In this document: piece by piece, positions 23,306 through 44,179 of the stretch | Numbering within the stretch: the stretch's first letter is position 1 | Layout: each line of letters begins with the position of its first letter | Made by a program: the position numbers and the translations under genes | From: a virus | DNA: 45,993 nucleotides | Reading direction: 5' to 3' (one strand) | Virus record (IMG/VR): IMGVR_UViG_3300028786_000014 | Span: 1-45,993 of that record | Notes under the pieces: model-generated | Database searches by the model: none | Told to the model about the DNA's origin: nothing | The model's input: only the letters and a program-made list of their open reading frames with translations

Positions 23306-23334
23306 TTGACATACATCAAGCCTTACCGTAATAT
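23306..23334 (+). promoter_or_regulatory. Strong promoter for the tRNA array
   Basis: TTGACA (23306-23311), 17 bases, TAATAT (23329-23334), only one mismatch from consensus. An inverted repeat GGCTTGA-6-TCAAGCC (23303-23322) overlaps the -35 box and could be an operator, or the remains of a terminator for the upstream gene. Confidence 0.75.
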
Positions 23335-23386: not shown

Positions 23387-23460
23387 CTTGCTATGGTGTA
23401 ATGGTAGCCCACCCGCTTTGGGAGCGGGGAGCCCCAGTTCGATTCTGGGTAGCTTGACCA
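23387..23460 (+). tRNA. tRNA-Pro (TGG)
   Basis: Anticodon loop TTTGGGA on a CCCGC/GCGGG stem; T arm CCCAG-TTCGATT-CTGGG; 3' CCA encoded. Acceptor stem CTTGCTA/TAGCTTG has T-T mismatches at pairs 2 and 3, and the D stem has one mismatch. Confidence 0.8.
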
Positions 23461-23463
23461 CTT

Positions 23464-23518
23464 TGAGAGAGGCTTAGGCGAAGTCGCCAGCCTTAAACGA
23501 CAGTCATTGCGTCTCTCA
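23464..23518 (+). ncRNA. Structured non-tRNA element 1 in the tRNA array
   Basis: A perfect 7-bp closing stem (TGAGAGA/TCTCTCA) encloses a long hairpin (GGCT, bulge, GGCG/CGCC, AGCC) and a linker TTAAACGACAGTCATTGCG. Size and closing stem mimic a tRNA acceptor, but there is no anticodon arm or TTCRA T loop. It fills the gap between two tRNA genes and has two relatives (24514-24566, 25221-25284). Confidence 0.55.
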
Positions 23519-23521
23519 CAT

Positions 23522-23592
23522 GCCCCACTGATGTAGTGGTAACATACCAGTCTTCCAAACTGGGCTCGCCGGTTCGAACCCGGCGTGGGGCT
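23522..23592 (+). tRNA. tRNA-Gly (TCC)
   Basis: Acceptor GCCCCAC/GTGGGGC fully paired; anticodon loop CTTCCAA on CCAGT/ACTGG; T arm GCCGG-TTCGAAC-CCGGC. CCA is not encoded. Confidence 0.93.
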
Positions 23593-23593
23593 C

Positions 23594-23668
23594 TGCGCGG
23601 TGATGAAACAGGGATCATGCCAGGCTCATATCCTGGTCTTGCGGGTTCGAATCCCGTCTGCGCCACCA
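23594..23668 (+). tRNA. tRNA-Met or tRNA-Ile2 (CAT)
   Basis: Anticodon loop CTCATAT on CCAGG/CCTGG. Acceptor TGCGCGG/CTGCGCC has a T-C mismatch at pair 1, as initiators do, but the anticodon stem lacks the three G-C pairs of an initiator. CAT could also be lysidine-modified to read ATA. CCA is encoded. Confidence 0.85.
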
Positions 23669-23671
23669 CGT

Positions 23672-23744
23672 ATCCCTGACCCAAAGCGGGCGACTGGCCT
23701 CCAAAACCAGTTACGTGTGGGGGCGGAACCTACCAGGGGTGCCA
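23672..23744 (+). tRNA. tRNA-Trp (CCA), aberrant D and T arms
   Basis: Acceptor ATCCCTG/CAGGGGT with discriminator G and encoded CCA; anticodon loop CTCCAAA with one mismatch closing the stem. The T loop reads GGCGGAA instead of TTCRANY and the D arm is short, so it may be divergent or non-functional. Confidence 0.65.
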
Positions 23745-23746
23745 GC

Positions 23747-23797
23747 TTGTCTCAGCATAGCTGAGAACACAAAGGGTCAGCTTCGTCTGACCCGCAA
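23747..23797 (+). ncRNA. Double-hairpin spacer element in the tRNA array
   Basis: Two strong hairpins, TCTCAGC-ATA-GCTGAGA and GGGTCAG-CTTCGT-CTGACCC, fill the gap between the Trp and Gln tRNAs. No U-run follows, so they are not ordinary terminators. They could be RNase III or maturation signals, or a small RNA. Confidence 0.4.
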
Positions 23798-23869
23798 TGC
23801 CTGATCGTCTAATCGGTAGGACACCTGGCCCTGGACCAGGGGGATGAGGTTCGAATCCTTGTCGGGCAG
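23798..23869 (+). tRNA. tRNA-Gln (CTG)
   Basis: Acceptor TGCCTGA/TCGGGCA, discriminator G as usual for Gln. Anticodon loop CCCTGGA on a perfect CCTGG/CCAGG stem gives CTG but has C instead of T at position 33. Confidence 0.78.
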
Positions 23870-23954
23870 CGAGAGCGGAGAAACCGGGTGCAATTCCCGG
23901 TCTCGGGACCACGTCTCGGGTAGGGGAAGCCAGCAATCCGCCGCTCGTGGAAAT
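23870..23954 (+). ncRNA. Structured spacer or degenerate tRNA element
   Basis: Contains a T-arm-like hairpin ACCGGG-TGCAATT-CCCGGT followed by TCTCGGGACCA, resembling the 3' end of a tRNA, but no matching D or anticodon arm. GAGCGG (23873-23878) can pair with CCGCTC (23942-23947) to close the whole segment. Either a broken tRNA or another member of the structured elements. Confidence 0.35.
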
Positions 23955-24037
23955 GGAAGGTAGCGCGGAACGGTCCGCAAGCGGTCTAGAAAGCCGTGCC
24001 GGGTGCAAGCCCGAGGGTTCGATTCCTTTACTTTCCG
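23955..24037 (+). tRNA. tRNA-Ser (AGA)
   Basis: Class II, 83 bases. Acceptor GGAAGGT/ACTTTCC, discriminator G. Anticodon loop CTAGAAA; long variable arm CCGGG-TGCAA-GCCCG. An A34 anticodon normally needs deamination to inosine or reads mainly TCT. Confidence 0.85.
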
Positions 24038-24041
24038 CTTT

Positions 24042-24122
24042 GGATTGATTGAGGCTGGGTCTCAAGAGGTTTGCTAAACCTCCTCACTCGCAAGGGTGCT
24101 GGTTCGATTCCAGGTCTCTCCG
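24042..24122 (+). tRNA. tRNA-Ser (GCT)
   Basis: Class II. Anticodon loop TTGCTAA on GAGGT/ACCTC; T loop TTCGATT; discriminator G. Acceptor GGATTGA/TCTCTCC has mismatches at pairs 4 and 5. Confidence 0.82.
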
Positions 24123-24123
24123 C

Positions 24124-24204
24124 TGGTTGAGTGCTGGGACACACGGGAGGCTGTAACCCTCTCTCCTTCGGGATAGCAGAGTTCGATTCTCTGGCGACCA
24201 ACCA
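24124..24204 (+). tRNA. tRNA-Tyr (GTA)
   Basis: Class II as in bacterial Tyr. Anticodon loop CTGTAAC on GGAGG/CCTCT; variable arm CTCC-TTC-GGGA type; T arm CAGAG-TTCGATT-CTCTG; encoded CCA. One acceptor mismatch at pair 7. Confidence 0.88.
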
Positions 24205-24207
24205 CCC

Positions 24208-24276
24208 GATCTGCTATGATGGTTCATAGCGGCGGCTGCAAACCGCCGCGTCTGAGTTCGATTCTCAGGTGGATCT
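24208..24276 (+). tRNA. tRNA-Cys (GCA)
   Basis: Acceptor GATCTGC/GTGGATC pairs with two wobbles; discriminator T as for Cys; anticodon loop CTGCAAA on GGCGG/CCGCC; T arm CTGAG-TTCGATT-CTCAG. Confidence 0.92.
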
Positions 24277-24281
24277 CTTAT

Positions 24282-24353
24282 GGGCTGTTAGTGTCAACGG
24301 TAGCACGACTGTTTTGCACGCAGTTAGCGAGAGTTCGAATCTCTCACGGTCCA
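24282..24353 (+). tRNA. tRNA-Ala (TGC)
   Basis: Acceptor GGGCTGT/ACGGTCC; pair 3 is G-T, where Ala tRNAs carry their identity wobble. Anticodon loop TTTGCAC; T arm GAGAG-TTCGAAT-CTCTC. Confidence 0.9.
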
Positions 24354-24354
24354 C

Positions 24355-24430
24355 TGGGAAGTAGTATAACGGTACATTACCCCCGCCTGATACGCGGGAA
24401 AACAGGGTTCAACTCCCTGCTTCCCTACCA
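24355..24430 (+). tRNA. tRNA-Ile (GAT)
   Basis: Anticodon loop CTGATAC on CCCGC/GCGGG; T arm CAGGG-TTCAACT-CCCTG; encoded CCA. Acceptor TGGGAAG/CTTCCCT has a T-T mismatch at pair 1. Confidence 0.88.
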
Positions 24431-24440
24431 CGTAAGACAT

Positions 24441-24512
24441 GCCTTCGTAGCTCAAAGGATGAGCAACACCTTGTCACGGTGAAGGGTGAGGGTTCGAGTC
24501 CCTTCGTAGGCG
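24441..24512 (+). tRNA. tRNA-Asp (GTC)
   Basis: Acceptor GCCTTCG/CGTAGGC with one T-T mismatch at pair 5; D arm GCTC/GAGC; anticodon loop TTGTCAC; T arm GAGGG-TTCGAGT-CCCTT; discriminator G. Confidence 0.9.
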
Positions 24513-24513
24513 C

Positions 24514-24566
24514 TGGAGTGAGGATTAAGCATCCTCTTAAGATCGAGCATTGCGCTTGGCGCTCCA
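24514..24566 (+). ncRNA. Structured non-tRNA element 2 in the tRNA array
   Basis: A 7-bp closing stem TGGAGTG/CGCTCCA encloses hairpin AGGAT-TAAGC-ATCCT, linker CTTAAGAT, and hairpin CGAGC-ATTGC-GCTTG. The linker shares TTAA, CGA and CATTGCG in order with element 1 (23464-23518). No anticodon arm or T loop. It sits tightly between Asp and Leu tRNAs. Confidence 0.55.
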
Positions 24567-24570
24567 ACAT

Positions 24571-24645
24571 GGTCCCTTGGCCCAACATGGTAGAGGCAAT
24601 AGGTTTAGGCCCTATACGGTGTCGGTTCGAATCCGACAGGGACTA
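24571..24645 (+). tRNA. tRNA-Leu (TAG), short variable region
   Basis: Acceptor GGTCCCT/AGGGACT; anticodon loop TTTAGGC on ATAGG/CCTAT; T arm GTCGG-TTCGAAT-CCGAC; discriminator A. The variable region is about five bases, whereas bacterial Leu tRNAs normally have a long variable arm. TAG here reads CTA; it is not an amber suppressor. Confidence 0.82.
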
Positions 24646-24657
24646 CTTGAAGTACAT

Positions 24658-24730
24658 GGTCCGGTCGTCTACTGGCTGTGGATACTCGGTTCTCACCCGA
24701 GAGGTCAGGGTTCAATCCCCTGCCGGACTA
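24658..24730 (+). tRNA. tRNA-Glu (CTC)
   Basis: Acceptor GGTCCGG/CCGGACT; anticodon loop TTCTCAC on CTCGG/CCGAG; T arm CAGGG-TTCAATC-CCCTG. Well formed. Confidence 0.9.
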
Positions 24731-24735
24731 CGCTA

Positions 24736-24806
24736 GCCCTCCTAGCTCAATGGTAGAGCACACGGTTGAAGCCCGTGAGACTGAGGTTCGATTCCTTGGG
24801 TCGGCA
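24736..24806 (+). tRNA. tRNA-Phe (GAA)
   Basis: Anticodon loop TTGAAGC on CACGG/CCGTG; D arm GCTC/GAGC; T arm TGAGG-TTCGATT-CCTTG; discriminator A. Acceptor GCCCTCC/GGTCGGC has mismatches at pairs 4 and 5. Confidence 0.85.
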
Positions 24807-24808
24807 CA

Positions 24809-24882
24809 CTTGCGTTAGCTTAAAGGTAAAGCACCTCGCTGTGACCGAGGGGAAACGGGATCGTTACCCGTACGCATGACCA
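24809..24882 (+). tRNA. tRNA-His (GTG)
   Basis: Anticodon loop CTGTGAC on CCTCG/CGAGG; acceptor CTTGCGT/ACGCATG with one mismatch at pair 2; encoded CCA. The T loop ATCGTTA departs from the TTCRANY pattern and no extra 5' G opposite a C73 is evident. Confidence 0.82.
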
Positions 24883-24885
24883 CTT

Positions 24886-24963
24886 GGGTCTGTAAGGTTT
24901 CGATCGGAGGGAAAGCCGCACGCGGAACCCTTCGGGACGCGGGTTCGATTCCCGCCAGATCCA
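24886..24963 (+). tRNA. tRNA-like gene, class II shape, isotype unclear
   Basis: Acceptor GGGTCTG/CAGATCC, T arm GCGGG-TTCGATT-CCCGC and a variable arm CCC-TTC-GGG are well formed. The D and anticodon arms between them do not fold cleanly; AGGGAAA could be a Ser (GGA) loop, but position 33 would be G and the stem is weak. May be degenerate. Confidence 0.5.
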
Positions 24964-24968
24964 CACGA

Positions 24969-24988
24969 CATGCGTACGGCGGCGCATG
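24969..24988 (+). ncRNA. Small spacer hairpin in the tRNA array
   Basis: CATGCG-TACGGCGG-CGCATG, six base pairs, lies in the 31-base gap before tRNA-Arg. Probably a processing signal. Confidence 0.35.
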
Positions 24989-24994
24989 GCTTAA

Positions 24995-25066
24995 GCTCGG
25001 TTCGTTCAACGGACAGGACAGGTGGCTACGAACCACCAGATAGGGGTTCGATTCCCTTACCGAGTA
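24995..25066 (+). tRNA. tRNA-Arg (ACG)
   Basis: Acceptor GCTCGGT/ACCGAGT; anticodon loop CTACGAA on a perfect GGTGG/CCACC stem; T arm AGGGG-TTCGATT-CCCTT. A34 is normally changed to inosine by TadA to read CGT, CGC and CGA. Confidence 0.92.
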
Positions 25067-25067
25067 C

Positions 25068-25142
25068 GCTCCGGTCGCACAGTCTGGTAGTGCATGGGAC
25101 TCTTAATCCCCGAGAACGTCGGTTCGAATCCGACCCGGAACA
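25068..25142 (+). tRNA. tRNA-Lys (CTT)
   Basis: Anticodon loop CTCTTAA; T arm GTCGG-TTCGAAT-CCGAC; acceptor GCTCCGG/CCGGAAC with one C-A mismatch at pair 2; discriminator A. Confidence 0.88.
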
Positions 25143-25143
25143 C

Positions 25144-25219
25144 GCCCTGCTAGCTCAACGGTTTAGAGTACCTGTTTAGTAATCAGGAGACGTGGGTTCG
25201 ATTCCTACGCGGGGCTCCA
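25144..25219 (+). tRNA. tRNA-Thr (AGT)
   Basis: Acceptor GCCCTGC/GCGGGGC; anticodon loop TTAGTAA on CCTGT/TCAGG; T arm GTGGG-TTCGATT-CCTAC; encoded CCA. A34 may be read as such or modified. Confidence 0.9.
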
Positions 25220-25220
25220 C

Positions 25221-25284
25221 AGTGAGAAGCACGGCCGTTGGGCGGCCGTGTTCTGACCGACAACGCCTTGAGTTGCGTCTCACT
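25221..25284 (+). ncRNA. Structured non-tRNA element 3 in the tRNA array
   Basis: A perfect 7-bp closing stem AGTGAGA/TCTCACT encloses hairpin CACGGCC-GTTGGGC-GGCCGTG and a second hairpin CAAC-GCCTTGA-GTTG. The first loop (CGTTG with its flanking C) can pair with CAACG of the linker, so a pseudoknot is possible. The 3' end GTTGCGTCTC matches element 1 (ATTGCGTCTC). Fills the Thr-Asn gap. Confidence 0.55.
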
Positions 25285-25287
25285 CAT

Positions 25288-25358
25288 TCTCGAATAGGAC
25301 AAAGGTAGTCCGGGTGGCTGTTAACCATCACATCTAGGTTCGATTCCTGGTTCGAGAG
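25288..25358 (+). tRNA. tRNA-Asn (GTT)
   Basis: Acceptor TCTCGAA/TTCGAGA fully paired; anticodon loop CTGTTAA on GGTGG/CCATC; T loop TTCGATT; discriminator G. Confidence 0.92.
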
Positions 25359-25359
25359 C

Positions 25360-25426
25360 TGCGCTACTAAAGGATAGGTCTGAGCCTCCTAAGCCTAGAT
25401 CGAGGGTTCGAATCCCTCTAGCGCTA
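25360..25426 (+). tRNA. tRNA-Arg (CCT), shortened D arm
   Basis: Anticodon loop CTCCTAA; T arm GAGGG-TTCGAAT-CCCTC; acceptor TGCGCTA/TAGCGCT with a T-T mismatch at pair 1. Only about 14 bases separate acceptor and anticodon stems, so the D arm is reduced; total 67 bases. Confidence 0.78.
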
Positions 25427-25427
25427 C

Positions 25428-25498
25428 GCTCCCTTCGTCTAATGGAAGGGCCGCTGTCCTACAAACAGCAGATGGCAGTTCGATTCTGTCAGGGAGCA
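25428..25498 (+). tRNA. tRNA-Val (TAC)
   Basis: Acceptor GCTCCCT/AGGGAGC fully paired; anticodon stem GCTGT/ACAGC with loop CCTACAA, giving TAC but with C at position 33; T arm GGCAG-TTCGATT-CTGTC. Confidence 0.88.
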
Positions 25499-25556
25499 CT
25501 CGTAACGTCAGACCGGCAGACGTTGCTGTATCCAAGTCCGGTATCATCGAGACGAG
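25499..25556 (+). ncRNA. Structured element 4 at the end of the tRNA array
   Basis: Closing stem CTCGT/ACGAG (5 bp) encloses hairpin AACGTC-AGACCGGCA-GACGTT. Loop bases ACCGG can pair with CCGGT at 25538-25542, an H-type pseudoknot. The stem-hairpin-linker order resembles elements 1-3, but the linker sequence is different. Confidence 0.45.
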
Positions 25557-25560
25557 CTTG

Positions 25561-25588
25561 ACCCGCATCCCCCTAGGTGCGGGTTATT
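25561..25588 (+). terminator. Terminator after the tRNA array
   Basis: ACCCGCA-10-TGCGGGT stem followed by TATTGG. Seven base pairs and a weak T-run suggest a partial terminator between the tRNA array and the scaffold gene. Confidence 0.55.
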
Positions 25589-25622
25589 GGCGTTTCATCC
25601 AACTAAGAATCTAGGAGTTCGC

Positions 25623-26108
25623 GTGACTAATTGGGGATTTGACGACAGCCAGACTGGCGACCAGGGCAACAACAACTTCGATACGCCCGGTGGGCTTCGA
25701 CAGTTTGCGGAGAAGACTCAGCAGGAGAACAAGGCTCTCAAGGATCAGCTAGCAGAGATTCAGAGGACCCTCCAGGTTCAGAGTGTTCAGTCTGTATTCA
25801 ATGATCTAGGCGTTCCAGGTGCAGCAGCGCTGTACCAGGGAGATGCCGATCCAGCGAAGATCAAGTCGTGGGTCGACGACCAGCGCAAGATCTTCGGTGG
25901 CAACACTCAGGGGACGCCAGATACGACCCCACCAGTTGACGTACGACCAGCAGAGTCTCTTCCTCCGATGCTCCAGCAGCAGATGGAGGCGTTCAACCAG
26001 GCGGGCCAGCAGGGCTCGCCACTTGGAACGGTTGAGCAGGCTCATGCGAACGTCAACGATGCCACTGATCTACAGGGACTTATCAATGCGATGAACTTCG
26101 GACGATAA
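25623..26108 (+). CDS. Probable capsid scaffolding protein
   Basis: 161 residues, GTG start with TAGGAG six bases upstream; the longer frame from 25587 lacks a ribosome site. A coiled-coil (FAEKTQQENKALKDQLAEIQRTLQ, about 25-48) and an otherwise polar, Gln/Pro-rich sequence right before the capsid gene fit a scaffold that guides procapsid assembly and is later lost. No enzymatic motif. Confidence 0.75.
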   Translation: MTNWGFDDSQTGDQGNNNFDTPGGLRQFAEKTQQENKALKDQLAEIQRTLQVQSVQSVFNDLGVPGAAALYQGDADPAKIKSWVDDQRKIFGGNTQGTPDTTPPVDVRPAESLPPMLQQQMEAFNQAGQQGSPLGTVEQAHANVNDATDLQGLINAMNFGR

Positions 26109-26253: not shown

Positions 26254-26655
26254 GTGAAACGCTGCAATAGGTGCGGCATCGAGAAGCCCGTGGAAGGCTT
26301 CTATCGGAATAGTAGATCCAGCGATGGACTACAGGGCTACTGTAAGCAGTGTGATAAAATCAGGCGTGAAACACCTGAACGCATGGAAGCTAAAAAACAT
26401 AGCGCATGGTTGGGCCAGCTTAAAAAGTATGGCATAACCGAATCCGAATACAATCAGATGTTCTCTGACCAGATGGGACTTTGTCGTATCTGTCAGAAGC
26501 CAGAAGTTGACATCAGGCTAGCAGTTGATCACGATCACGAGACCGGCAAGGTCCGTGGACTGCTGTGCAAGAGATGCAATATGGCTATTGGTCTGCTTGA
26601 CGATGACCCACAGATCGTGACTAGCGCAGCCCTATACCTCCGAGGCAACAAATAG
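26254..26655 (+). CDS. HNH endonuclease inserted in the capsid gene
   Basis: 133 residues. CNRCGIEKPVEGFY and CKQC knuckles, CRIC, LAVDHDHETGKVRGLLCKRCNMAIGLLDDDP: endonuclease VII-like HNH, the same family as the genes at 9526 and 38421. GTG is the only possible start after an in-frame stop; the AAGGA just before it is too close to be ideal. The stop codon TAG overlaps the right direct repeat. Probable homing endonuclease that has invaded a conserved site in the capsid gene. Confidence 0.85.
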   Translation: MKRCNRCGIEKPVEGFYRNSRSSDGLQGYCKQCDKIRRETPERMEAKKHSAWLGQLKKYGITESEYNQMFSDQMGLCRICQKPEVDIRLAVDHDHETGKVRGLLCKRCNMAIGLLDDDPQIVTSAALYLRGNK

Positions 26656-26681: not shown

Positions 26682-27620
26682 ATGTCGAACCTCGTCCAGA
26701 CCGCCTATGACAGGGCGCTGGAGTTCGCACTGCGTGCGCAGCCGACTTTCCGTAACATCGTAGACAAGAAGCCAGTGGCCCAGGCAATGCCTGGATCTAG
26801 CGTTGTCTTCGAGCTTTACCAGGATCTAGCACAGCAGATCACTCCGCTCAACGAGCTGGTTGATCCCGATGCCGTGGCTGCTGGACAGCCGACCACCGTT
26901 ACGGTTACTCTGAACGAGTACGGTAACGCGATCCTCGTGTCTAACAAGCTTGATCTGTTCAGCTTCACCGACGTGACCGCAGGTCTCGTCAACCAGGTGG
27001 CGTGGAACCTGATCGACTCTATCGACCTTATCGTACAGAACGTTCTACAGGCAGGAACTCAGGTCATCCGTCAGAACGGTGACCCAGCTACTGTCAACCC
27101 AACGTACAACGGTGGTACCACTGCTGGTGTAACGACTGCTTCTATCTACAGTTCCAAGGCTATCCGCCTTGCAGTAGCAAAGCTTCGCTTCCAGAAGGTC
27201 CACCCTAACAAGGGTTCGTACTACACCACGTACATCTCTCCCGAGGTCTCCATGGATCTCCGTGCCGAGACTGGTAACGCAGCTTGGCGTCCACCGCACG
27301 AGTACTCTTCTGCCGGTAACATCTGGGCAGGAGAGATCGGTGAGTACGAGGGTTCTGTATTCATCGAGACCCCTCGCGTGAACTACGCACTGACCGGTGC
27401 TGGTGCTGCGGTTAACGTCTTCCAGACCTACACCGTAGGTCAGCAGGCGCTAGCCGAGGCTGTTGCCGAGGAGTTCCACACCGTTCGTGGACCAGTTGTA
27501 GATAAGCTTACCCGCTTCCAGCCTCTTGGTTGGTACGGCGTAGCAGGATGGTCTCTGTACCGTCCCGAGTCTCTGATCCGCACCGAGACTACTGCTTCCA
27601 TCCACACCACTGGAGCGTAA
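26682..27620 (+). CDS. Major capsid protein, N4-gp56-like; 5' end interrupted
   Basis: 312 residues from the first in-frame ATG. The pattern YTVGQQALAEAVAEEFHTVRG and FQPLGWYGVAGWSLYRPE near the end is that of the N4-gp56 capsid family with an HK97-type fold. No Shine-Dalgarno precedes this ATG, and the frame is open upstream through ANAFTGTAA, which matches the orphan start at 26183. So either translation restarts here after the HNH gene, or RNA splicing or ribosome bypassing joins the two parts. Confidence 0.88.
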   Translation: MSNLVQTAYDRALEFALRAQPTFRNIVDKKPVAQAMPGSSVVFELYQDLAQQITPLNELVDPDAVAAGQPTTVTVTLNEYGNAILVSNKLDLFSFTDVTAGLVNQVAWNLIDSIDLIVQNVLQAGTQVIRQNGDPATVNPTYNGGTTAGVTTASIYSSKAIRLAVAKLRFQKVHPNKGSYYTTYISPEVSMDLRAETGNAAWRPPHEYSSAGNIWAGEIGEYEGSVFIETPRVNYALTGAGAAVNVFQTYTVGQQALAEAVAEEFHTVRGPVVDKLTRFQPLGWYGVAGWSLYRPESLIRTETTASIHTTGA

Positions 27621-42734: not shown

Positions 42735-43508
42735 ATGGTCATGACGGTCAAGACCACGGTGATTCTACCGGATATCCAGTATCCATTTCACGATTCTCTG
42801 ATGCTACAGAAGATCCTTAAGGTTGTCAAGGAGGTACAGCCCGACTCTGTACTCAGCATCGGAGACGCCATAGACTTCCCACAGGTCTCTAGGTGGAGCA
42901 TCGGTACGGCTGGAGCCTACGCTCCCACCCTACAAGAGCACATAGATGGGTTCCGCCATGACGTCCTGCATGGGCTTAGGGAAGCCGCTCCCGGATCGAA
43001 AATCACTTGGCTTGAGGGCAACCACGACCTTCGGCTCCGAGATTTCATCGGGAAGTACGCTCCGCCACTGAGGACGCTCCGAGCCCTTGATGTCCAGGAA
43101 CTCTTCGGTCTGGCTGAGTTTGACATCAGTTACGAACGAGGCCCACTCAGAGTAGCCACGAACACCTATGCGGTTCATGGTCATGAGCTTGGCACTTACG
43201 TGTCTACTCCCCACGCTTGGGATCAGAAGTTCATGAAGAGGTACGGAAGCGAGAAGAACTTCGTTTTCGGACATACCCACCAGCCTTTCGTTACTACACG
43301 TGCCACTGGCTTCGGTGGCAAGGTTTCCCCGTGGTTCACTATGAACGTGGGAAGCATCATGGATCCAACCGAGGCTCGCTACATCAAGGACGGTTCCGTC
43401 AGTTGGACCATGTCATTCGCGCTACTGCGCGATGACGGTAAGCGTGTGTGGCCCGAGCTGGTTATCGCAAACAACCGCTCGTTCTGGATTAACGGAGTTA
43501 AATATTGA
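42735..43508 (+). CDS. Calcineurin-like metallophosphoesterase
   Basis: 257 residues. Motifs in order: LPDIQYP (11-17), SIGDAID (41-47), LEGNHDLR (93-100), VHGHELG and FGHTHQP, a two-metal phosphoesterase. Substrate unknown; phage enzymes of this kind may act on nucleic acids, cyclic nucleotides or repair ends. The ATG at 42735 or 42741 may start it; no clear ribosome site, so it could be leaderless or poorly translated. Confidence 0.9.
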   Translation: MVMTVKTTVILPDIQYPFHDSLMLQKILKVVKEVQPDSVLSIGDAIDFPQVSRWSIGTAGAYAPTLQEHIDGFRHDVLHGLREAAPGSKITWLEGNHDLRLRDFIGKYAPPLRTLRALDVQELFGLAEFDISYERGPLRVATNTYAVHGHELGTYVSTPHAWDQKFMKRYGSEKNFVFGHTHQPFVTTRATGFGGKVSPWFTMNVGSIMDPTEARYIKDGSVSWTMSFALLRDDGKRVWPELVIANNRSFWINGVKY

Positions 43509-44179
43509 GTACGCTAGACTACGACCAGATCATGCCTATCGTGAAGAGCGTAGCAACCTCAGTGTCATCTAAGTTTCCCCCGTATGTTCGATCCGATGAC
43601 ACCGAGGGTGCGCTACTCCTGTGGACGTATCAGAACAAGTCCACACTTGAGGGCATGATGGAGGACGGGGGTGCTTACATCCCCAAGATCGCATCCATGA
43701 TGCGCAAGGCGGCTTTCAGCCACTGCGCAGCAGAGAAGGCAGCGTCGGAAGGATATGATCCGTCTGACATTTACCGCTACTCTGCACCCAAGATCAAGTC
43801 ACTCATCGCCGATGCGATGGACTATGAAAACTGGCAGTCGTTCAACTCGTTCGGGGATGGACAGCCGAAGGCTGCCACCCAAACCTATAACGAGCGCACG
43901 ACAGAGCTAGTAGATATCAAGAACGCCATGTCAAAGCTCAATGACGACTCGTACAACATCCTTGTTTACCAGTTCAAGTACGAACTGACTTCCGAGGAGA
44001 TCGGCACGATCCTCGGCATGACGGCCGAGGCGGTCAGGAAGCGGTCCCAGAGGGCCGTCAAGGCCCTACAGAAGGAGCTTGGGTACAAGGACGCACAGCC
44101 TGCTCCGCAGGCCGGTAGGCGCCCTGTCAGGAGCAACGCAGCATGGCGTGCTGATCTTTCCACTAGCTATGAAGGCTAA
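43505..44179 (+). CDS. Sigma-factor-like protein
   Basis: 224 residues. TTG start overlaps the previous stop with CGGAG eight bases upstream. Residues 138-190 (LNDDSYNILVYQFKYELTSEEIGTILGMTAEAVRKRSQRAVKALQKEL) match sigma region 4, the part that reads the -35 box. N-terminal region resembles region 2 only loosely. May redirect host RNA polymerase to phage promoters. Confidence 0.8.
   Translation: MSTLDYDQIMPIVKSVATSVSSKFPPYVRSDDTEGALLLWTYQNKSTLEGMMEDGGAYIPKIASMMRKAAFSHCAAEKAASEGYDPSDIYRYSAPKIKSLIADAMDYENWQSFNSFGDGQPKAATQTYNERTTELVDIKNAMSKLNDDSYNILVYQFKYELTSEEIGTILGMTAEAVRKRSQRAVKALQKELGYKDAQPAPQAGRRPVRSNAAWRADLSTSYEG

What the first reader, a model, noticed from the sequence alone, without database searches (positions are those of the whole stretch)
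23464..25284. A family of small tRNA-sized RNAs that are not tRNAs inside the array
Elements at 23464-23518, 24514-24566 and 25221-25284 each have a 7-bp closing stem, a first hairpin, and a linker with shared bases (TTAA..CGA..CATTGCG in the first two, TTGCGTCTC in the first and third). They exactly fill gaps between tRNAs but lack anticodon and T arms. A fourth candidate (25499-25556) has the same plan with a possible pseudoknot between loop ACCGG and CCGGT. They may be decoys for tRNA nucleases, tRNA-like regulators, or substrates of the tRNA maturation machinery. I know of no described family that matches.
Basis: partly seen in the sequence, partly recalled or inferred. Interest (0 to 1): 0.82.

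Follow-up and report, generated by a model that had tools for sequence, protein, structure and literature searches.

The report
tRNA mimics inside a phage tRNA array
A soil phage related to known Streptomyces phages carries, wedged between about 22 tRNA genes, several small structured RNAs that are not tRNAs, two of which are recognisable imitators of tRNA (a Y-RNA-like "inside-out" tRNA and a tmRNA stripped of its tag), so its tRNA array is also a kit of tRNA look-alikes whose roles can be tested.

Summary
The window is a Beephvirinae-like phage with a tRNA array at 23387-25499. E2 (24514-24566) and E3 (25221-25284) each have one homologue, with helices kept through base changes (16/16 and 18/19 pairs). 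E1 (23464-23518) is weaker. They are not clearly one family: E1 is the best non-self match to the E3 model (E about 0.001), while E2 is separate. E4 is different: an H-type pseudoknot leader conserved in 20 of 20 relatives examined, with compensatory changes in 7 of 8 pairs.

23871-23953 is a circularly permuted tRNA fold, the plan of the YrlA tRNA-mimic module of bacterial Y RNAs. It has 17 covarying members and no Ro60 gene in the window or eight complete relatives. 24886-24966 is a tRNA-like-domain-only tmRNA (58 bits against a cut-off of 47), with homologues in four large Streptomyces phages; the published DS6A form of this RNA inhibits tmRNA.

Best reading: structured RNA cassettes co-transcribed with, and probably freed by, tRNA maturation. 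E1-E3 are most likely shape-selected spacers. The Y-like module and mini-tmRNA are probably decoys of tRNA-handling machinery. The functions are inferred; no expression data exist here.

The parts
23306..23334 (+). sigma-70-like promoter (TTGACA-17-TAATAT) upstream of the array
   Evidence: 1 found, 1.1 expected by chance; a similar TTGACA-type site in the nearest relative L016, not clearly in others
23387..25499 (+). tRNA array covering all 20 amino acids (20 genes by ARAGORN plus tRNA-Arg(CCT) 25360-25426 and a Trp-like gene 23670-23746)
23464..23518 (+). E1: self-closed structured RNA in the Pro-Gly gap (closing helix TGAGAGA/TCTCTCA counting 23463)
   Evidence: z -3.2; similarity to L016 Pro-Gly gap p about 0.003; best non-self hit of the E3 model in the window
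23871..23953 (+). Y-RNA-like, circularly permuted tRNA-mimic module: closing stem 23873-23878/23941-23946, T arm 23884-23900, capped acceptor hairpin 23902-23920, D arm 23925-23939
   Evidence: model R1: 17 members, 98.8% of cells paired, 17 of 21 pairs with double changes; none in reverse strands or shuffles with the strict descriptor
24514..24566 (+). E2: three-way-junction structured RNA in the Asp-Leu gap
   Evidence: homologue L041 1104-1154, 16/16 pairs kept; no other member
24886..24966 (+). tRNA-like-domain-only tmRNA (no tag frame, no pseudoknots); invariant G3:U70
   Evidence: Rfam RF00023 58 bits, cut-off 47; homologues L016, LuckySocke, GiJojo, BRock, pSt2308; 96.5% of cells paired, 9 pairs with double changes
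25221..25284 (+). E3: three-way-junction structured RNA in the Thr-Asn gap; hairpin loops GTTGGGC and GCCTTGA could make a short loop-loop contact (not tested)
   Evidence: homologue L016 4060-4123, 18/19 pairs kept, 4 double changes
25499..25556 (+). E4: H-type pseudoknot in the leader of the scaffold/capsid genes, followed by a terminator-like hairpin and a conserved CTAGGAG
   Evidence: conserved in 20 of 20 relatives aligned; 7 of 8 pairs with double changes; 0 of 500 shuffles reach the covariation score

Best explanation
The tRNA array is a polycistronic RNA operon into which several kinds of structured, self-closed RNA cassettes are inserted at tRNA junctions. SHOWN: the folds of E2, E3, the Y-RNA-like module, the mini-tmRNA and E4 are kept by compensatory changes; cassettes change junction and are gained or lost between relatives; each ends in a short leader just before the next tRNA. 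INFERRED: they are transcribed with the tRNAs and released by the same enzymes (RNase P cutting the downstream tRNA's 5' end, tRNA 3' processing cutting upstream). INFERRED: E1-E3, which have no conserved sequence core across phages, are selected for shape and act mainly as structured spacers that keep neighbouring pre-tRNAs apart. INFERRED: the Y-RNA-like module (an 'inside-out' tRNA with capped acceptor stem and no anticodon loop) and the tag-less mini-tmRNA act as tRNA mimics that occupy tRNA-handling proteins (tRNA nucleases, PNPase or modification enzymes; SmpB and trans-translation). E4 is a separate cis-acting leader of the capsid operon.
For: Gaps as a class: closing helix of at least 5 bp in 79 of 94 gap sequences against 25 of 94 coding controls, median z -1.67 against -0.59. 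In 34 distinct arrays, 174 of 667 junctions carry an insert of 20 nt or more, with U at -1 in 134 of 174. Movement: E2 at Asp-Leu here and Lys-Thr in L041; Y-like module at Gln-Ser here and in L016, Pro-Gly in most relatives, Gln-Ala in L082 and Pro-Phe in L043; mini-tmRNA at His-Arg here and Arg-Lys in L016. Covariation. Mimic functions: TLD-only tmRNA is reported to inhibit tmRNA strongly (PMC4131195; PMC11915505); the YrlA tRNA-like domain is modified by tRNA enzymes and binds PNPase (PMC8394870), and has been proposed as a competitive inhibitor of an anticodon nuclease (PMC7790460).
Against: No RNA data: transcription, cleavage and abundance are untested. Most junctions in the same arrays have no insert of 20 nt or more, so spacers are not required. 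E3 keeps loop sequences as well as stems, which hints at more than a spacer. The window copy of the Y-like module does not itself reach the Rfam YrlA model.
Confidence: 0.5

Rival explanations
1. E1-E3 are themselves trans-acting decoys or inhibitors (of tRNA nucleases, tRNA-modifying enzymes or defence effectors), a kit of diversified RNA bait that turns over quickly in an arms race.
For: They sit beside two genuine tRNA mimics; rapid gain, loss and movement; E3 and its homologue keep loop sequences.
Against: No tRNA feature (T-loop, acceptor end) in E1-E3; no Rfam match; each has at most one homologue.
Confidence: 0.22
2. E1-E3 are degenerating remnants of lost tRNA or mimic genes that still fold.
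For: Clear remnants exist: the 43-nt Pro-Gly insert of L001/L003 is a shrunken Y-like module (model hits); Manuel Gln-Tyr (33 nt) looks like the T arm of a lost tRNA-Ser; Abafar Ile-Leu keeps only the tail of the 244-nt element.
Against: Double compensatory changes in E3 (4) and E2 (1) point to maintained structure; no tRNA homology.
Confidence: 0.15
3. E1-E3 are small self-cleaving ribozymes like the theta (HDV-like) ribozymes found beside phage tRNAs.
For: Compact folds next to phage tRNAs; theta ribozymes are described in that setting (PMC10879173).
Against: No HDV-type or other ribozyme model matches at permissive thresholds; only a nested three-way plan is supported, with no double pseudoknot.
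Confidence: 0.05
4. The cassettes are DNA-level elements (recombination or homing sites) and their RNA folding is incidental.
For: Cassettes move between junctions; an endonuclease VII gene lies nearby.
Against: All are on the tRNA strand; G-U pairs are used in E2, E3 and the mimics; the folds are nested multi-arm RNAs rather than palindromes.
Confidence: 0.08

Closest known systems
YrlA, tRNA-mimic effector module of bacterial Y RNAs (Rfam RF02553)
   Same: Same order of parts: closing stem, T arm, acceptor stem capped by a loop, D arm, closing stem. Family-B copies in relatives match the module part of the model at 28-35 bits, among the best in their genomes.
   Different: No Ro60/TROVE gene in the window genome or eight complete relatives; only a 6-bp closing stem bounded by tRNAs instead of the long Ro-binding stem; the window copy itself is not matched by the model; embedded in a tRNA array.
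Ro-linked Y RNAs of other actinophages (Lumos, Satis, Cashline, FuzzBuster)
   Same: Homologous module plan; they lie beside Ro-like or RNA-binding protein genes; FuzzBuster matches RF02553 at 33 bits.
   Different: Stand-alone next to a Ro-like gene. In FuzzBuster the ends of the transcript form a longer basal helix (read directly), absent here.
TLD-only tmRNA of mycobacteriophage DS6A
   Same: tmRNA tRNA-like domain without tag frame or pseudoknots in a phage (PMC4131195; PMC11915505).
   Different: Here inside a tRNA array, with a conserved GCCGCAYGCGG hairpin in place of the mRNA-like domain, shared with four large Streptomyces phages. DS6A itself was not available for alignment.
Circularly permuted tRNA genes of red algae and archaea
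   Same: 3' half precedes 5' half in the gene.
   Different: Those are ligated into working tRNAs by splicing endonuclease (PMC3978253). Here the acceptor helix is capped by loops as short as 3 nt and there is no anticodon loop.
Theta (HDV-like) ribozymes next to phage tRNAs
   Same: Small structured RNA adjacent to phage tRNA genes (PMC10879173).
   Different: No HDV-like match in the array.

Membership tests
   E3 model finds E1 at E 0.0013 but not E2; E2 model finds E1 only at noise level
   E4 is an H-type pseudoknot with its own covariation and position
YrlA / bacterial Y RNA (for 23871-23953) | Permuted tRNA module: T arm, capped acceptor, D arm within a closing stem | tested here: met
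   RF02553 structure line shown
YrlA / bacterial Y RNA (for 23871-23953) | Score over the Rfam gathering threshold (69 bits) | tested here: not met
   No match for the window copy; best relatives 28-35 bits
YrlA / bacterial Y RNA (for 23871-23953) | Long basal stem that binds Ro60/Rsr | tested here: not met
   6-bp stem flanked at once by tRNAs
YrlA / bacterial Y RNA (for 23871-23953) | Linked Ro60 (TROVE) gene | tested here: not met
   Absent in window genome and 8 complete relatives, found in FuzzBuster
YrlA / bacterial Y RNA (for 23871-23953) | Carries tRNA modifications; binds PNPase | not testable with these tools
   needs biochemistry
tmRNA, TLD-only form (for 24886-24966) | tmRNA covariance model over its cut-off | tested here: met
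   58 bits against 47
tmRNA, TLD-only form (for 24886-24966) | G3:U70 alanine identity pair | tested here: met
   invariant in 6 of 6
tmRNA, TLD-only form (for 24886-24966) | No tag reading frame or pseudoknots | tested here: met
   81 nt; the 304 model positions of that region are replaced by 12 nt
tmRNA, TLD-only form (for 24886-24966) | Inhibits endogenous trans-translation | not testable with these tools
   shown for a DS6A-like molecule in the literature only
tRNA | Anticodon and T arms in E1-E3 | tested here: not met
   no tRNA hit to E1-E3 at E up to 5
Theta/HDV-like ribozyme | Match to an HDV-like model or double-pseudoknot fold | tested here: not met
   no match at E up to 5

The most novel reading that the evidence does not exclude
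The array is an RNA-based counter-defence island: alongside spare tRNAs it expresses a panel of tRNA look-alikes (a Ro-free Y-RNA module that cannot be cut at an anticodon, a tag-less tmRNA that titrates SmpB, and fast-evolving three-way-junction RNAs E1-E3) which together blunt host tRNA-cleaving defences and ribosome rescue.
Probability: 0.2. Interest if true: 0.88.

Novelty: new variant of a known kind. Interest (0 to 1): 0.62.

Why it matters
Phage tRNA arrays are usually read as tRNA supply or as replacement for tRNAs cut by defences. Here about a quarter of the junctions in 34 related arrays hold inserts, among them a conserved Y-RNA-like tRNA mimic without Ro60 and a tag-less tmRNA, neither annotated in the public records examined. 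If the mimics are expressed they give direct, small, testable inhibitors of tRNA nucleases and trans-translation, and they show that the Y-RNA tRNA module can live apart from Ro60.

Tried and rejected
Theta/HDV-like ribozymes: no Rfam match at permissive thresholds. Circularly permuted tRNA that is ligated into a working tRNA: rejected as best reading because acceptor loops shrink to GAT or GATA in L067 and L035 and the closing stem leaves no normal anticodon loop. RF02553 hits alone: not used as proof, since tandem tRNAs give sub-threshold YrlA scores and 13 of 14 control genomes ring. Blastn of E1, E2 and E3 against 50,697 phage records: only chance-level hits. The 244-nt insert of relatives: no Rfam family. 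Ro60 in bacterial genomes near FuzzBuster's: one Propionicimonas hit, not informative for Streptomyces. An MFE fold of 23871-23954 misses the T and D arms; the comparative structure was preferred because all its pairs hold in all six family-A members. The family-B acceptor helix is bulged or imperfect in several members, so its exact pairing there is less certain.
Full report
WHAT THE WINDOW IS. The window is a phage of the Beephvirinae type (relatives Immanuel3, Manuel, FlowerPower), a virus record of 45,993 bases. Its tRNA array lies at 23387-25499 between a minor tail/hypothetical gene and the scaffold and major capsid genes (phrog major head protein at 26682-27620). ARAGORN finds 20 tRNAs. 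Rfam adds a weak tRNA-Arg(CCT) at 25360-25426, and a Trp-like gene with an abnormal T loop lies at 23670-23746.

CHECK OF THE OBSERVATION. E1, E2 and E3 fill the Pro-Gly, Asp-Leu and Thr-Asn gaps as stated and fold better than dinucleotide shuffles (z -3.2, -2.05, -3.1). No Rfam family covers them. The decisive test is relatives. I fetched arrays of 13 named phages and more than 200 IMG/VR loci. E2 has one homologue, in L041 at a different junction (Lys-Thr): all 16 pairs are kept, one double change (A-U to G-C) and two single changes. E3 has one homologue, in L016 at the same junction: 18 of 19 pairs are kept with four double changes spread over all three helices. With two sequences each, shuffle controls are weak (E3 reached by 91 of 500, E2 by 257 of 500), but every slid version pairs far worse. 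E1 resembles the L016 Pro-Gly insert (p about 0.003). No further members were found by exact motif scans or models.

ONE FAMILY? Pairwise tests give p 0.03, 0.03 and 0.43. The E3 model picks E1 as its best non-self match in 46 kb (20.9 bits, E 0.0013) above its own reverse-strand artefact of 16 bits; the E2 model does not. So E1 and E3 may be related, and E2 is not shown to be. What they share with many other inserts is a plan: closing helix, hairpin, 5-9 nt purine-rich linker, second hairpin, closing helix, short leader.

E4. The fourth candidate is a different, well supported element. In 20 relatives a hairpin with a loop-to-downstream pseudoknot follows the last tRNA. 96.3% of cells pair, 7 of 8 pairs have double changes (for example ACCGG/CCGGT, GCTGG/CCAGC, GTCAG/CTGAC), and no shuffle reaches the covariation score. 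It precedes a terminator-like hairpin and a conserved CTAGGAG, so it is most simply a cis-acting leader of the scaffold/capsid genes (inference).

THE Y-RNA-LIKE MODULE (23871-23953). Reading the gaps of relatives showed a recurring 81-92 nt insert whose order is: closing stem, T arm, acceptor 3' strand, short loop, acceptor 5' strand, D arm, closing stem. A strict descriptor found hits only on the tRNA strand (40 forward, 0 reverse, 0 in Markov-shuffled sequence; some forward hits are chance combinations of neighbouring tRNAs). A relaxed one gave 17 distinct clean elements scoring above all others. A model from six family-A copies (100% of cells paired, 11 of 21 pairs doubly changed) recovers family B and L082 at E 1e-6 to 1e-11. 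On 17 members 98.8% of cells pair and 17 of 21 pairs have double changes. The acceptor stem is capped by CAC, GAT, GATA or longer loops, so aminoacylation is unlikely. This is the plan of YrlA, the tRNA-mimic module of bacterial Y RNAs (RF02553 alignments; description in PMC8394870). Relatives score 28-35 bits on that model, the window copy none. Other actinophages carry unannotated copies beside Ro-like or RNA-binding protein genes (Lumos, Satis, Cashline, FuzzBuster). Here TROVE is absent from the window genome and from eight complete relatives. Manuel (L006) lacks the insert at Pro-Gly and had no model hit at E below 0.1; L001, L003 and L051 keep only weak or remnant hits. So it is YrlA-like, but not a Y RNA by the defining Ro partnership.

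THE MINI-tmRNA (24886-24966). Rfam scores it 58 bits against a cut-off of 47 with the whole mRNA-like domain missing. Of 27 related records only the window and L016 pass. Full-length matches (about 82% identity; pSt2308 73.5%) exist in Streptomyces phages LuckySocke, GiJojo, BRock and pSt2308, none annotated as tmRNA. In six sequences 96.5% of cells pair, nine pairs have double changes and G3:U70 is invariant. TLD-only tmRNA is known from mycobacteriophage DS6A, and a similar molecule strongly inhibits tmRNA, perhaps by titrating SmpB (PMC4131195; PMC11915505).

HOW IT MOST LIKELY WORKS. Shown: inserts occur at 174 of 667 junctions in 34 arrays (some counted inserts are divergent tRNAs that ARAGORN missed, for example the 68-nt Asn-Val class); U precedes the next tRNA in 134 of 174; gap sequences close on themselves far more than coding controls; cassettes move between junctions. 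Inferred: RNase P and tRNA 3' processing free them. E1-E3, without a conserved core, are most likely shape-selected spacers. The two mimics probably act in trans on tRNA-handling proteins. For the Y-like module the published suggestion that the YrlA domain competitively inhibits an anticodon nuclease (PMC7790460) is the most concrete model. None of this has been tested by expression.

Noticed in passing
24886-24966: tRNA-like-domain-only tmRNA, with unannotated homologues in Streptomyces phages LuckySocke, GiJojo, BRock and pSt2308; a conserved GCCGCAYGCGG hairpin replaces the mRNA-like domain.
   Followed up: yes
L257 2501-2568, L258 3001-3068, L259 2501-2547, L251 600-662: Unannotated YrlA-like Y RNAs next to Ro-like or RNA-binding protein genes in phages Lumos, Satis, Cashline and FuzzBuster.
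   Followed up: partly
L250 about 535-668: Microbacterium phage BAjuniper carries two tandem YrlA-like modules between tRNA-Pro and tRNA-Asn, with no TROVE gene.
   Followed up: partly
L001 2341-2584 and L002, L003, L008, L009, L011, L018, L035, L037, L038: A 242-245 nt structured insert that changes junction between relatives (Asp-Leu, Leu-Phe, Leu-Lys, Glu-Phe); no Rfam family.
   Followed up: partly
L004 2864-2925, L006 2392-2452, L035 3947-4006: Insert with two hairpins whose loops CCCCAAG and CTTGGGG are complementary while the stems change: a likely kissing-loop RNA at three different junctions.
   Followed up: no
L003 2961-3025, L007 3783-3847, L011, L018, L006: Conserved 65-nt Arg-Lys insert with a closing stem that changes (AGAGGC/GCCTCT, CGAGGC/GCCTCG).
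   Followed up: no
23670-23746: tRNA-Trp-like gene (anticodon CCA) whose T loop reads GGCGGAA instead of TTCRANY; not recognised by ARAGORN or Rfam.
   Followed up: no
25557-25623: Hairpin with loop CCCCTAGG upstream of a conserved CTAGGAG ribosome-binding-like site; loop and site could pair (possible translational control of the scaffold gene).
   Followed up: no
26254-26652: Endonuclease VII (HNH-type) gene inserted between the scaffold and major capsid genes.
   Followed up: no
43505-44176: Protein with sigma-70 region 4, a possible phage sigma factor.
   Followed up: no
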